Assembly (NCBI RefSeq): GCF_005771635.1
Contig: NZ_VBWP01000001.1
Coordinates: forward strand, 186,001-250,000
Reading direction: 5' to 3'
DNA from: Culicoidibacter larvae
Lineage (GTDB): Bacteria; Bacillota_I; Bacilli_A; Culicoidibacterales; Culicoidibacteraceae
Length of the DNA stretch: 64,000 nucleotides
The notes below the pieces were generated by a model. The model was not told the origin of the DNA. It saw only the letters and a list, made by a program, of their open reading frames with translations, and searched no databases. The first letter of the stretch is position 1, and each line of letters starts with the position of its first letter. Positions 40,923 through 43,952 of the stretch are shown here, piece after piece. The translations under genes were made by a program, and so were the position numbers.

Positions 40923-41726
40923 CTATCTTAATAAAACCGAATCATCCACCAACTCGGTACCACTATTTTTCTGGAAGAGTGCCAGCAAATCGGTGACTCC
41001 CAGCTGTGCCTTTTCAGCACCGCTGACATCAACAACAATCTGACCTTCATGCAACATAATCAAACGATTACCATGCTTCAAAGCATCATCCATGTTATGA
41101 GTAATCATTATCGTTGTCAGATTTTTTTCAGCAACCAGTTTATCTGTTAGTGCCAAAACCGATTGACTGGTTTTAGGATCCAGAGCTGCGGTATGTTCAT
41201 CAAGAAGCAGTAATTTTGGCGCAATTAAAGTTGCCATCAGCAAAGTCAGTGCCTGTCGTTGACCGCCAGATAATAAACCGACTTCAGCTTTGAGTCGTTC
41301 TTCAAGACCGAGATCAAGACTCACTAATTGTTCGCGGAAGAAATTACGGTCTTTATTGGTAATGCGCGAAAATATACTAGGTGTACGACCGCGATTCATT
41401 GCCAAGGTTAAGTTTTCTTCAATTGAAAGTCTCGTTGCCGTACCTAGACGCGGGTCTTGAAAGACGCGACCGATACATTTTGAACGTTTTTCAACTGAAT
41501 GCTTGGTAATGTTGGCACCATCTAGAGTGATAGTGCCGGAATCAGCCAGCAGCGTGCCGGCGATAGTATTGAGCAGAGTAGACTTACCAGCGCCATTGCC
41601 ACCAATTACGGTAACGAAGTCGCCGTGCGCCAAGCTCAAATTCACTCCTTTTAAAACGTGGTTTTCATTGACCGTACCGGCATGAAATGTTTTTTGAATA
41701 TTCTCTAAAGTGAGTAGTGCAGACAT
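40923..41726 (-). CDS. ABC transporter ATPase, TrpZ-like
   Basis: 267 residues from ATG 41726, which shares its A with the stop codon TGA of the permease gene. Walker A GGNGAGKST, Q-loop GRVFQDPRLG, signature LSGGQRQAL and Walker B LLLLDEHTAALD, all intact. The group that follows TrpX-type binding proteins in streptococci is described as a tryptophan importer (TrpXYZ); the family energises uptake through the membrane subunit encoded just upstream. Confidence 0.92.
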   Translation of the reverse strand: MSALLTLENIQKTFHAGTVNENHVLKGVNLSLAHGDFVTVIGGNGAGKSTLLNTIAGTLLADSGTITLDGANITKHSVEKRSKCIGRVFQDPRLGTATRLSIEENLTLAMNRGRTPSIFSRITNKDRNFFREQLVSLDLGLEERLKAEVGLLSGGQRQALTLLMATLIAPKLLLLDEHTAALDPKTSQSVLALTDKLVAEKNLTTIMITHNMDDALKHGNRLIMLHEGQIVVDVSGAEKAQLGVTDLLALFQKNSGTELVDDSVLLR

Positions 41727-42616
41727 CAAAATTTTGCTCCTTTCTTTTTACCAAGTTGCTTAATGGCATTGCTAATTAGCGGCGAGCAAAGGGCGATTGT
41801 CAGTAATATTGCCGTTGCTAATTTCAAATCAATCGGGTTAATACCGAGTTCGAAGACAATTGCCATAATCAGACGGTAAATGATAGCCCCAACTACAATA
41901 GTCAGCAAACGCATACCAAAAGTCAGATTGTGGAAAATCACCTCGGCAATGATAACTGCCGCAAGTCCGATAACGATAGTCCCAATACCCATACTGATAT
42001 CAGCATACCCATTATTCATCGCCATCAGTGTTCCGCTAAGAGCAATCAAACCATTTGAAATCATGTAGCCAATTATCTTCATCCGATCAGTTCGCACACC
42101 ATTCGCCTTGCTCATTGTCTCATTATCGCCGGTCGCGCGAATTGCCAATCCAAGACCAGTGTTAAAGAATAAAAACAACACAAGAATTACTAAAGCAATC
42201 ATTACACCACCGATAACCAGCATCGCCATATCACTTGAAAGCCCAAGCGGCGCTAACCACTGAACCAAAGTTTCCTTGCCAATTAAATTCAAGTTCCCTT
42301 GACCCATAACGTGCATGTTGATTGAGTATAAAGCGGTCATAGTTAAAATACCGCTCAAAAGTGCCGGTATTTTAAGCTTTGTCGTGAGCAACCCGGTACA
42401 AAGTCCGGCAATCATTCCAGCACCAAACCCGGCCAAAACTGCAAGCAGCGGGTGCACGTTAATGGTAATTAACGCCGCACAGACCGCCGCTCCTAAAGGA
42501 AACGAACCCTCAGCAGTTAAATCGGCAATGTCCAAAATTCGGTAAGTCAGGTAAACCCCGATTGCCATTATTGCCCAGATAAATCCCTGGGAAACACTTG
42601 AAAATAAAATGTCCAT
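41726..42616 (-). CDS. ABC transporter permease, TrpY-like
   Basis: 296 residues with about eight to nine hydrophobic helices; the branched-chain-permease-like motif LDIADLTAEGSFPLGAA is present near residue 28 and GLSSDMAMLVIG in the middle. It lies 22 bases after the binding protein gene and overlaps the ATPase gene, so the three are one operon. Substrate is likely an aromatic amino acid, based on the attenuator that contains a Trp codon (inference). Confidence 0.9.
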   Translation of the reverse strand: MDILFSSVSQGFIWAIMAIGVYLTYRILDIADLTAEGSFPLGAAVCAALITINVHPLLAVLAGFGAGMIAGLCTGLLTTKLKIPALLSGILTMTALYSINMHVMGQGNLNLIGKETLVQWLAPLGLSSDMAMLVIGGVMIALVILVLFLFFNTGLGLAIRATGDNETMSKANGVRTDRMKIIGYMISNGLIALSGTLMAMNNGYADISMGIGTIVIGLAAVIIAEVIFHNLTFGMRLLTIVVGAIIYRLIMAIVFELGINPIDLKLATAILLTIALCSPLISNAIKQLGKKKGAKF

Positions 42617-42638: not shown

Positions 42639-43601
42639 TTAATTCGGCGCTACAATGCTGTCTGGATCAATACCGATCTTTTCAGCTGTTTCGCGATTAA
42701 TGACTAATTGTAATTTTTGTGAAGTTTCAACTGGCATTGTTGCCGGAGTTGCCTCACCTTTTAATACTTTAACTGCCATCTCACCGGTTTGCTTCCCTAA
42801 GTCATGATAGTTAATACCAAATGTTGCCAACCCTCCGGTTTCTACTTGATCAGTCGAACCAGGAATAACCGGGACATTGTACTTTTCAACAACGCTTGCA
42901 ACTGTCGGCATACTTGATGCAAGGGTGTTATCAGTTGGAATATAAATAGCATCAACTTGTTTTGCTAAAGTTTCAGTTACTTGCTGCACATCATTAGTTG
43001 ATGTAACCGTCAATTCCTTAACGGTAACTCCGGCAGCCTCAAGAGCAGTTTTAGCTAAATCTGCTTGAATCTGTGAATTAGTTTCACTTGAATTATAAAG
43101 AATACCAACCGTTTTGGCATTTGGTACAATTGACATCAATAAAGCAGCTTGTTTCTCAATCGGTACCATATCGCTGGTTCCGCTCACAGTACCACCAGGT
43201 GCTTCCATTGATTGCACTAAACCAGCATCAACCGGATCAGTAACTGCAGTAATCATAATTGGCACATCTTTGCCTTCATTCACCAACGCTTGTGCCGCTG
43301 GTGTGGCAATTGCTAAAACCAAATCATTGTTCTTAGTTAACCGTTCGCTCATACTTTTCAGATTCGCCTGGTCGCCTTGAGCATTTTGGTAATCAATTTC
43401 TAAATTCTCACCCTCAACATAACCGGCTTCTGCCAATGCTTCCAAGAAACCTTCACGCGCAGCATCCAAAGAGGGGTGACTAATTAATTGTAAAATACCA
43501 ATGCGCACTGTGCCGTCACTGGCCGTGTTGCCTCCGGCACATCCCGCCAAGGCGCTTGCTGTGAGCAAGATGATTGCTCCGATAGATAATAATTTTTTCA
43601 T
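42639..43601 (-). CDS. ABC transporter substrate-binding lipoprotein, TrpX-like
   Basis: 320 residues. The signal peptide ends in a lipobox (ALAGC, Cys21), so it is a lipid-anchored receptor. The mature part contains VRIGILQLISHPSLDAAREG, VTDPVDAGLV and YIPTDNTLASSMPTV, diagnostic of the PF04392-type binding proteins that include TrpX. AAGGAG precedes the ATG. Its mRNA begins with an approximately 315-base leader carrying a possible amino-acid attenuator, which suggests repression by plentiful Trp or other aromatic amino acid. Confidence 0.9.
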   Translation of the reverse strand: MKKLLSIGAIILLTASALAGCAGGNTASDGTVRIGILQLISHPSLDAAREGFLEALAEAGYVEGENLEIDYQNAQGDQANLKSMSERLTKNNDLVLAIATPAAQALVNEGKDVPIMITAVTDPVDAGLVQSMEAPGGTVSGTSDMVPIEKQAALLMSIVPNAKTVGILYNSSETNSQIQADLAKTALEAAGVTVKELTVTSTNDVQQVTETLAKQVDAIYIPTDNTLASSMPTVASVVEKYNVPVIPGSTDQVETGGLATFGINYHDLGKQTGEMAVKVLKGEATPATMPVETSQKLQLVINRETAEKIGIDPDSIVAPN

Positions 43602-43642
43602 GATATAAACTCCTTCTTGTTTAAACTTTCTTTAGCTGTAAC

Positions 43643-43680
43643 AAAAAACACGATTTGGATAGATAAAATCTCAAATCGTG
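43643..43680 (-). terminator. Second terminator in the trpX-like leader
   Basis: CACGATTTG pairs with CAAATCGTG, followed by TTTTTT on the minus strand. Its loop contains TTATCTATCC, the exact complement of GGATAGATAA in the stem of the first terminator (43740-43731). Confidence 0.75.
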
Positions 43681-43700
43681 TTCAGCTCGTCAATTTAAAT

Positions 43701-43807
43701 AAAAAGAAAAAGCCACCTAGAATAGAGTTCTTATCTATCCATGTGGCTTTTGGTATTGCAAAATGCTTTAGCCAACATAGATACAAACGTTTGTTTGCAC
43801 CCATGTT
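43701..43807 (-). promoter_or_regulatory. Candidate three-stem amino-acid attenuator before the TrpX-like operon
   Basis: On the minus strand, region 1 AACATGGGTGCAAAC (43807-43793) pairs over 15 bases, with G-U pairs, with region 2 GTTTGTATCTATGTT (43788-43774). Region 2 extended (TATCTATGTTGGCT) pairs with region 3 (AGCCACATGGATA), 13-14 bp with one bulge. Region 3 (AAAAGCCAC, 43751-43743) pairs with region 4 (GTGGCTTTT) to make a terminator with T-run to 43701. These pairings exclude one another, as in enteric trp attenuators. No T-box TGGNACC sequence is seen. Confidence 0.7.
43707..43751 (-). terminator. Attenuator terminator in the trpX-like leader
   Basis: AAAAGCCAC pairs with GTGGCTTTT, with an inner stem GGATAGA/TCTATTC, followed by T's. 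This is the 3:4 stem of the attenuator. Confidence 0.8.
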
Positions 43808-43815
43808 AGTTTCAT
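43768..43815 (-). CDS. Leader peptide 2 (15 codons) with a Trp codon in attenuator stem 1
   Basis: Reading MKLTWVQTNVCIYVG, stop TAA. ATG is two bases after the stop of leader peptide 1, so it probably depends on re-initiation. The single Trp codon TGG (43803-43801) falls in the middle of region 1 and the stop codon falls in region 2. A ribosome stalled at TGG would free region 2; one reaching the stop would cover region 2. Confidence 0.5.
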   Translation of the reverse strand: MKLTWVQTNVCIYVG

Positions 43816-43817
43816 GA

Positions 43818-43889
43818 CTACAAACAGCATCTAAAATAGCTAAAGTAAAAATTATTTAATTGTTTCAGGTTTTTAATCGGCGTTTGCAT
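43818..43889 (-). CDS. Leader peptide 1 (23 codons), aromatic-rich
   Basis: ATG at 43889 with GGAGGT at 7 bases, a strong site. The peptide is MQTPIKNLKQLNNF then YFSYFRCCL; three Phe and two Tyr in seven codons. Its stop TAG at 43820-43818 abuts the second leader ORF, so ribosomes would be delivered to the attenuator. Confidence 0.55.
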   Translation of the reverse strand: MQTPIKNLKQLNNFYFSYFRCCL

Positions 43890-43923
43890 AGCTCGAACCT
43901 CCACAATAATTTTTATTGCTTTA

Positions 43924-43952
43924 ATGATAGCAGGCAACAGCATTACTGTCAA
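43924..43952 (-). promoter_or_regulatory. Promoter of the TrpX-like operon
   Basis: TTGACA, 17 bases, TATCAT on the minus strand; leader start expected near 43917. Confidence 0.8.

What the first reader, a model, noticed from the sequence alone, without database searches (positions are those of the whole stretch)
43601..43952. Leader-peptide attenuator before a TrpX-like ABC operon
The minus-strand leader has a strong promoter, a 23-codon ORF with a good GGAGGT site and Phe/Tyr-rich end, then a 15-codon ORF starting two bases after its stop. That second ORF has a Trp codon inside the left arm of a 15-bp stem 1:2 and its stop codon inside region 2. Region 2 also pairs with region 3 over 13-14 bp (one bulge), and region 3 with region 4 to form a terminator. 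This is the enteric trp attenuator logic in a Gram-positive transporter operon, where T-box or TRAP control is usual. A second terminator downstream has a loop complementary (10 bases) to the first terminator's inner stem, which could couple the two. The two stacked leader ORFs and two stacked terminators are unusual.
Basis: partly seen in the sequence, partly recalled or inferred. Interest (0 to 1): 0.85.

Follow-up and report, generated by a model that had tools for sequence, protein, structure and literature searches.

The report
Tyr/Phe leader-peptide attenuator before transporter operon
A short RNA leader in front of a bacterial amino-acid transporter appears to switch the genes on when the ribosome runs short of tyrosine or phenylalanine, and it belongs to a widespread, so far misfiled family of such switches in Gram-positive bacteria that use tyrosine/phenylalanine or tryptophan codons to match the gene they control.

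Summary
The leader is an attenuator, but the sensor is a different ORF and a different amino acid. The 23-codon ORF1 (…QLNNFYFSYFRCCL*) is the conserved control peptide. It has relatives before the same transporter in 55+ Enterococcus, Vagococcus, Lactobacillus and Aerococcus loci, always with Tyr/Phe codons (YYFSYFR*, FFFSFFR*, YYYSYYR*). The same RNA with Trp codons (SWQNWRR*) precedes true trpX and trpB. The Tyr/Phe version precedes aroE, aroF, aroC and aroK. The downstream protein scores below the TrpX cut-off (361 vs 390) and clusters with the Tyr/Phe-led transporters, so it is probably a Tyr/Phe importer. ORF2 and its Trp codon are mostly not conserved. The helices co-vary or recur across the family. 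Folding with a ribosome parked codon by codon frees the antiterminator only while the ribosome sits on the aromatic codons. With no ribosome, or with one at the stop codon, it stays blocked. The Tyr/Phe and Trp versions match two separate Rfam entries, "Enterococcus sRNA 2410" and the "trpB motif" riboswitch candidate, so both are better explained as one ribosome-mediated attenuator family. Not tested experimentally.

The parts
43924..43952 (-). Promoter TTGACA-N17-TATCAT with TG before the -10
43897..43902 (-). Shine-Dalgarno GGAGGT of leader ORF1
   Evidence: an SD precedes the leader ORF in the relatives too
43818..43889 (-). Leader ORF1, MQTPIKNLKQLNNFYFSYFRCCL*, the control peptide (Tyr/Phe codons)
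   Evidence: conserved in frame with the same C-terminus in 55+ loci
43828..43845 (-). Region 0: aromatic codons of ORF1; pairs with region 2 when no ribosome is present
   Evidence: helix 1: 94.4% of cells paired, 5 pairs changed on both sides
43813..43825 (-). Region 1a: pairs with 1b
   Evidence: helix 2: 95.9% paired, 7 pairs changed on both sides
43793..43805 (-).
43768..43815 (-). ORF2, MKLTWVQTNVCIYVG*: present, mostly not conserved, role doubtful
43766..43788 (-). Region 2: partner of 0, 1b or 3
43733..43748 (-). Region 3: pairs with 2 (antiterminator) or 4 (terminator 1)
43701..43751 (-). Terminator 1 (3:4) with U-run
   Evidence: -16.0 kcal/mol, z -4.0
43640..43681 (-). Terminator 2 with U-run; no 4:5 coupling detected in this leader
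   Evidence: -16.4 kcal/mol; 4:5 p = 0.92
42639..43601 (-). Substrate-binding protein, TrpX-like but in the Tyr/Phe-leader clade
41726..42616 (-). Permease (BPD_transp_2)
40923..41729 (-). ABC ATPase

Best explanation
This is a ribosome-mediated transcription attenuator that senses charging of tRNA-Tyr/tRNA-Phe through ORF1 and controls an ABC importer that is probably for Tyr/Phe. With no ribosome on ORF1, its end (region 0) pairs with region 2 and the terminator 3:4 can form: OFF. When Tyr/Phe-tRNA is plentiful, the ribosome reaches the end of ORF1 and covers 0 and 1a; 1b then pairs with 2, and 3:4 forms: OFF. When Tyr or Phe is short, the ribosome stalls on FYFSY and covers region 0 but leaves 1a free; 1a:1b forms, region 2 is released and pairs with 3, and terminator 1 cannot form: ON. 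Shown by computation: conserved ORF1, control codons that match gene function, helix conservation, and the codon window in which 2:3 forms. Inferred: actual stalling, read-through, kinetic capture of 2:3, and substrate. Unresolved: how terminator 2 is passed in this organism.
For: Leader ORF1 is conserved in frame with aromatic codons. Among 52 further copies found by model R1, 11 Trp-codon leaders precede TrpX and 1 precedes an SNF-family transporter nearest 4us3 (MhsT, to my knowledge). Of 40 Tyr/Phe leaders, 23 precede aro genes; the rest precede TrpX-like binding proteins or BrnQ-type carriers (genes named by family model for examples, the others by sequence resemblance). Of 30 'trpB motif' loci found independently, 28 have a leader ORF with Trp near its end; three of those precede a TrpB-like protein, named from its sequence. 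TrpX model cut-off 390: six of six tested binding proteins behind Trp leaders score 418-463; all eight tested behind Tyr/Phe leaders, and the window's protein (361), score below it. The two classes are separate clades (support 100 and 99). Helices 0:2, 1a:1b and 3:4: 15 of 39 pairs changed on both sides vs 4.4 in shuffles. In L. apis a Phe-to-Tyr codon change (TTT to TAT) is matched by an A-to-T change in region 2. Ribosome-position folding: mean P(2:3) 0.25 with no ribosome, about 0.8 on the aromatic codons, 0.29 at the stop; window F .90, Y .92, F .80, S .72, Y .53, then .02 at the next F. In 12 Trp leaders P(2:3) exceeds 0.5 in 12 of 12 with the A site from six to three codons before the stop, the two Trp codons in nearly all, and is 0.15 at the stop. 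In E. faecium the homologous RNA was seen as two transcripts by Northern blot (PMC5593968), which fits a terminated leader.
Against: No experiment on any member was found. Once region 4 is transcribed, 3:4 nearly always wins at equilibrium, so the switch must be kinetic. A few leaders (L077, L090, L096, L088, and the YYLSYYR* copies of L193 and L194) do not switch in the model. In this window terminator 2 lacks the 4:5 escape that most relatives have and would form even with 2:3 in place (P 0.997, nested folding only). Some peptides have non-aromatic residues inside the run (YYLSYF, YYVSYY, YDYSYY). QLNN before the run is conserved and unexplained.
Confidence: 0.87

Rival explanations
1. Trp attenuation through ORF2: ORF2 is translated by coupling to ORF1 and a stall at its Trp codon covers 1b and frees region 2.
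For: In the window the geometry works: a ribosome with TGG of ORF2 in the A site gives P(2:3) 0.96. Three Vagococcus leaders and L003 also have ATG...TGG in frame there.
Against: Absent in 51 of 56 leaders. TGG is simply part of the ATGGATACAAAC hairpin arm. No SD of its own. Relatives needing Trp control carry Trp in ORF1. The protein is not TrpX by the curated model. Lacticigenium ORF2 has no Trp.
Confidence: 0.07
2. A metabolite-binding riboswitch, as proposed for the related trpB motif (PMC11109978).
For: Rfam files the Trp version as a cis-regulatory motif and its authors call it a strong riboswitch candidate with a terminator.
Against: A co-varying helix uses the coding end of ORF1. Control codons track gene function. 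28 of 30 trpB-motif loci have a Trp-codon ORF just upstream. The authors themselves did not rule out attenuation.
Confidence: 0.04
3. A TnaC-like arrest peptide: the conserved peptide itself, with free Tyr/Phe, stalls the ribosome at the stop codon and keeps region 2 bound to 1b.
For: Peptide conservation goes beyond the control codons (QLNN, Ser, Arg). A ribosome at the stop favours 1b:2.
Against: Tyr, Phe and Trp replace one another at about the same places and follow the downstream gene. The switching window lies on the codons, not on the stop. The peptide end varies (FR*, FRCCL*, SYY*).
Confidence: 0.05
4. An independent small RNA (as sRNA_2410 was filed).
For: Seen as discrete transcripts in E. 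faecium.
Against: In the loci read here it lies just upstream of aromatic transport or biosynthesis genes in the same direction and ends in terminators.
Confidence: 0.02

Closest known systems
Enteric trp operon attenuator (and pheA, his and leu leaders)
   Same: Leader ORF with control codons; alternative 1:2, 2:3 and 3:4 helices; stalled ribosome favours antiterminator
   Different: Control codons lie in an extra region 0 that pairs with region 2; a separate hairpin 1a:1b releases region 2; absence of translation is predicted to give OFF through 0:2; many members add a 4:5/5:6 relay to a second terminator; no sequence homology was seen (no Rfam trp leader match)
Rfam RF02863, Enterococcus sRNA 2410
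   Same: Homologous RNA, full-length match 59.3 bits, E 2e-9, same 0:2 and 1a:1b helices
   Different: Filed as a small RNA, no role in aromatic amino acids stated in the source paper; window is 1.7 bits under the curated threshold
Rfam RF04312, trpB motif (riboswitch candidate SRC-39-1)
   Same: Same 1b:2 hairpin and terminator; Trp-codon members of this family reach its threshold
   Different: Window scores 33.8 vs 59; the model leaves out the leader ORF, region 0 and 1a
Trp T-box of trpXYZ in Streptococcus suis
   Same: Controls a related importer by tRNA charging (PMC9382623)
   Different: Direct tRNA binding, no leader peptide; no T-box at this locus
His leader peptide of hisS/hisZ in bacilli
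   Same: Leader-peptide control in Firmicutes (PMC2965389)
   Different: Other amino acid and genes; noted there as the first regular case in Firmicutes known to its authors

Membership tests
Ribosome-mediated transcription attenuator | Translatable leader ORF with SD and control codons for the regulated pathway | tested here: met
Ribosome-mediated transcription attenuator | Mutually exclusive antiterminator and terminator helices, conserved | tested here: met
Ribosome-mediated transcription attenuator | Stall on control codons favours antiterminator; completion favours terminator | tested here: met
   by thermodynamic model only, before region 4 is made
Ribosome-mediated transcription attenuator | Read-through rises on starvation for the amino acid | not testable with these tools
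   needs a reporter experiment
RF02863 sRNA_2410 | Score at or above the curated threshold (61 bits) | tested here: not met
   59.3 bits; clear homolog; related leaders reach up to 206 bits
RF04312 trpB motif | Score at or above 59 bits | tested here: not met
   33.8 bits
TrpX (NF041285) | Protein score at or above 390 bits | tested here: not met
   361 bits; tree places it outside the Trp-leader clade
T-box | RF00230 match upstream of the operon | tested here: not met
   no Rfam match at threshold in the window, although the genome has 8 T-boxes over the cut-off
Riboswitch | Ligand-dependent termination without ribosomes | not testable with these tools
   needs in vitro transcription

The most novel reading that the evidence does not exclude
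One attenuator chassis with swappable Tyr/Phe/Trp codons passes the ribosome's position along a chain of up to seven alternative helices (0:2, 1a:1b, 1b:2, 2:3, 3:4, 4:5, 5:6). In this organism a second in-line ORF with a Trp codon adds a second input, so either Tyr/Phe or Trp shortage opens the operon.
Probability: 0.1. Interest if true: 0.85.

Novelty: new variant of a known kind. Interest (0 to 1): 0.74.

Why it matters
Leader-peptide attenuation is usually taught as a Gram-negative strategy, with T-boxes doing this job in Gram-positives. Here is a large attenuator family in Lactobacillales and relatives that covers transport and synthesis genes of the aromatic amino acids. It gives a testable function to an orphan riboswitch candidate with over 900 examples (trpB motif) and to an Enterococcus small RNA. 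Its control codons also predict transporter specificity, separating Tyr/Phe importers from TrpX, which share one family model.

Tried and rejected
Trp control by ORF2: rejected as the main mechanism. Equilibrium folding that includes region 4: uninformative, because 3:4 nearly always wins, so the test was run on RNA truncated after region 3. The 1b:2 helix first looked unsupported by covariation in a fixed register, because Lactobacillus and some Phe-only leaders shift register; a register-free duplex test supported it in 80 of 82. Terminator coupling through the T2 loop: 12% of shuffled leaders have a match as long somewhere. T-box scans of the other TrpX-like loci found T-boxes in only a few. 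Searches for more copies in the window's class and phylum found few; the family lives mainly in Lactobacillales, reached through loci. Literature searches found no prior description as an attenuator, but many subscription papers are not held; Panina 2003 on aromatic amino acid control in low-GC Gram-positives, cited, was not read, and Vitreschak 2008 is not held.

Full report
Observation. The promoter matches 11 of 12 consensus bases with 17-nt spacing. ORF1 (43889-43818) is preceded by GGAGGT; ORF2 (43815-43768) starts after a 2-nt gap. The 319-nt leader folds far better than shuffles (z -7.2), as do stem 1:2, terminator 1 and terminator 2 singly.

Homologs. A search with the binding protein returned 78 named loci. 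In more than 50 of them, plus L003, a short ORF upstream ends in the same peptide motif as ORF1. Enterococcus mostly has QLNNRYYFSYFR*. Second paralogs in E. pallens, E. florum and two unnamed enterococci (665A, 669A) have NSFFFSFFR*. L. apis has NNRYYYSYYR*. The window has NNFYFSYFRCCL*. Mostly only aromatic residues replace one another at these places. By contrast, an ATG-started ORF2 with an in-frame Trp occurs in only five leaders (window, three Vagococcus, L003); the TGG is part of a hairpin arm.

Structure. In an alignment of 33 representative leaders, helices 0:2, 1a:1b and 3:4 are paired in 94.6% of cells, and 15 of 39 pairs have changes on both sides (shuffles 4.4; slid controls 2-5). 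Helix 2:3 is paired in 97.5% of cells. The rows are related, so the shuffle counts are not probabilities. Region 0 is coding and pairs with region 2. Where L. apis turns Phe TTT into Tyr TAT, region 2 changes to match.

Control codons follow the gene. A covariance model (R1) found up to seven copies per genome in 27 of 29 genomes, most of them Lactobacillales. In 52 additional copies, Tyr/Phe leaders precede shikimate dehydrogenase, DAHP synthase, chorismate synthase, shikimate kinase, TrpX-like binding proteins, and BrnQ-type carriers. Leaders with Trp codons (SWQNWRR* and similar) precede TrpX, and in one genome an SNF-family transporter whose nearest solved structure is 4us3, MhsT to my knowledge. 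The curated TrpX model separates the two: 418-463 bits behind Trp leaders, 291-361 behind Tyr/Phe leaders, with the cut-off at 390. In a tree, binding proteins behind Trp leaders form one clade (support 100); those behind Tyr/Phe leaders, the window's among them, form another (99), which also holds three leaderless rows. One Tyr-leader protein, L012, lies outside it.

Two Rfam entries, one family. Tyr/Phe leaders match RF02863 (Enterococcus sRNA 2410) and several Trp leaders match RF04312 (trpB motif), above threshold. RF04312 was found in 115 of 199 genomes of the order. Of 30 loci examined, 28 have a leader ORF with Trp near its end, and three of them precede a protein that looks like TrpB by sequence. 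The trpB motif was published as a riboswitch candidate, with attenuation not ruled out (PMC11109978). The E. faecium RNA was seen as two transcripts (PMC5593968).

Mechanism. I folded each leader up to the end of region 3 with a ribosome parked at each codon (12 nt downstream of the A site blocked; 10 and 14 gave the same pattern). In 33 leaders the mean probability of 2:3 is 0.25 without a ribosome, 0.80-0.82 with the A site four to seven codons before the stop, and 0.29 at the stop, where 1b:2 takes over (0.88). In the window it is high from F to Y of FYFSY and near zero afterwards. In 12 Trp leaders 2:3 exceeds 0.5 in all twelve from six to three codons before the stop, which in nearly all is the stretch from the first Trp codon to the second. 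This is a three-state switch: OFF untranslated, ON stalled on the control codons, OFF completed. When region 4 is included, 3:4 wins at equilibrium, so capture of 2:3 before region 4 appears must be kinetic. That is an inference.

Variants. In most Tyr/Phe transporter leaders 3:4 has no U-run; region 4 is complementary to the left arm of the real terminator (4:5), so the signal is passed on by one more step. This was significant in 56 of 82 leaders. Trp leaders and the window have a U-run directly after region 4, which makes 3:4 itself the terminator. The window still has a second strong terminator without 4:5 pairing; how it is passed is unexplained. The region between 3 and 4 can pair with its loop (-12.7 kcal/mol duplex), but no relative supports this.

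Host. The leader is absent there. The window's genome has eight T-boxes over threshold elsewhere.

Limits. No experiment was run. Substrate is inferred from codons, model score and tree. Novelty is judged against an open-access library only.

Noticed in passing
L121 and L122 (genomes G024, G046), leader 1501-1656: A BrnQ-family carrier, named for branched-chain amino acids, lies behind a Tyr-rich leader (RFYYSYYC*, YDYSYYC*), which suggests an aromatic substrate or cross-control.
   Followed up: partly
L124, leader 1501-1648: An SNF-family transporter nearest 4us3 (MhsT) lies behind a Trp-codon leader (NNWRNWSY*), a specificity prediction.
   Followed up: partly
All leader types, codons just before the aromatic run: QLNN or QLN is conserved in many Tyr/Phe and Trp leaders alike; its role (RNA pausing, peptide, or other) is unknown.
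   Followed up: no
L073 (Lactobacillus kimbladii), leader: The leader lacks 1a and 1b, as if deleted between two GGTTTG repeats; this would remove the switch or could be an assembly error.
   Followed up: no
L166, L168, L171, L175, L181, L185, L187: A Trp-leader trpX operon and a Tyr/Phe-leader aro operon lie about 3 kb apart in the same direction, each with its own attenuator of the same family.
   Followed up: partly
window 43640-43681: Second strong terminator directly before the first gene with no detected release mechanism.
   Followed up: partly
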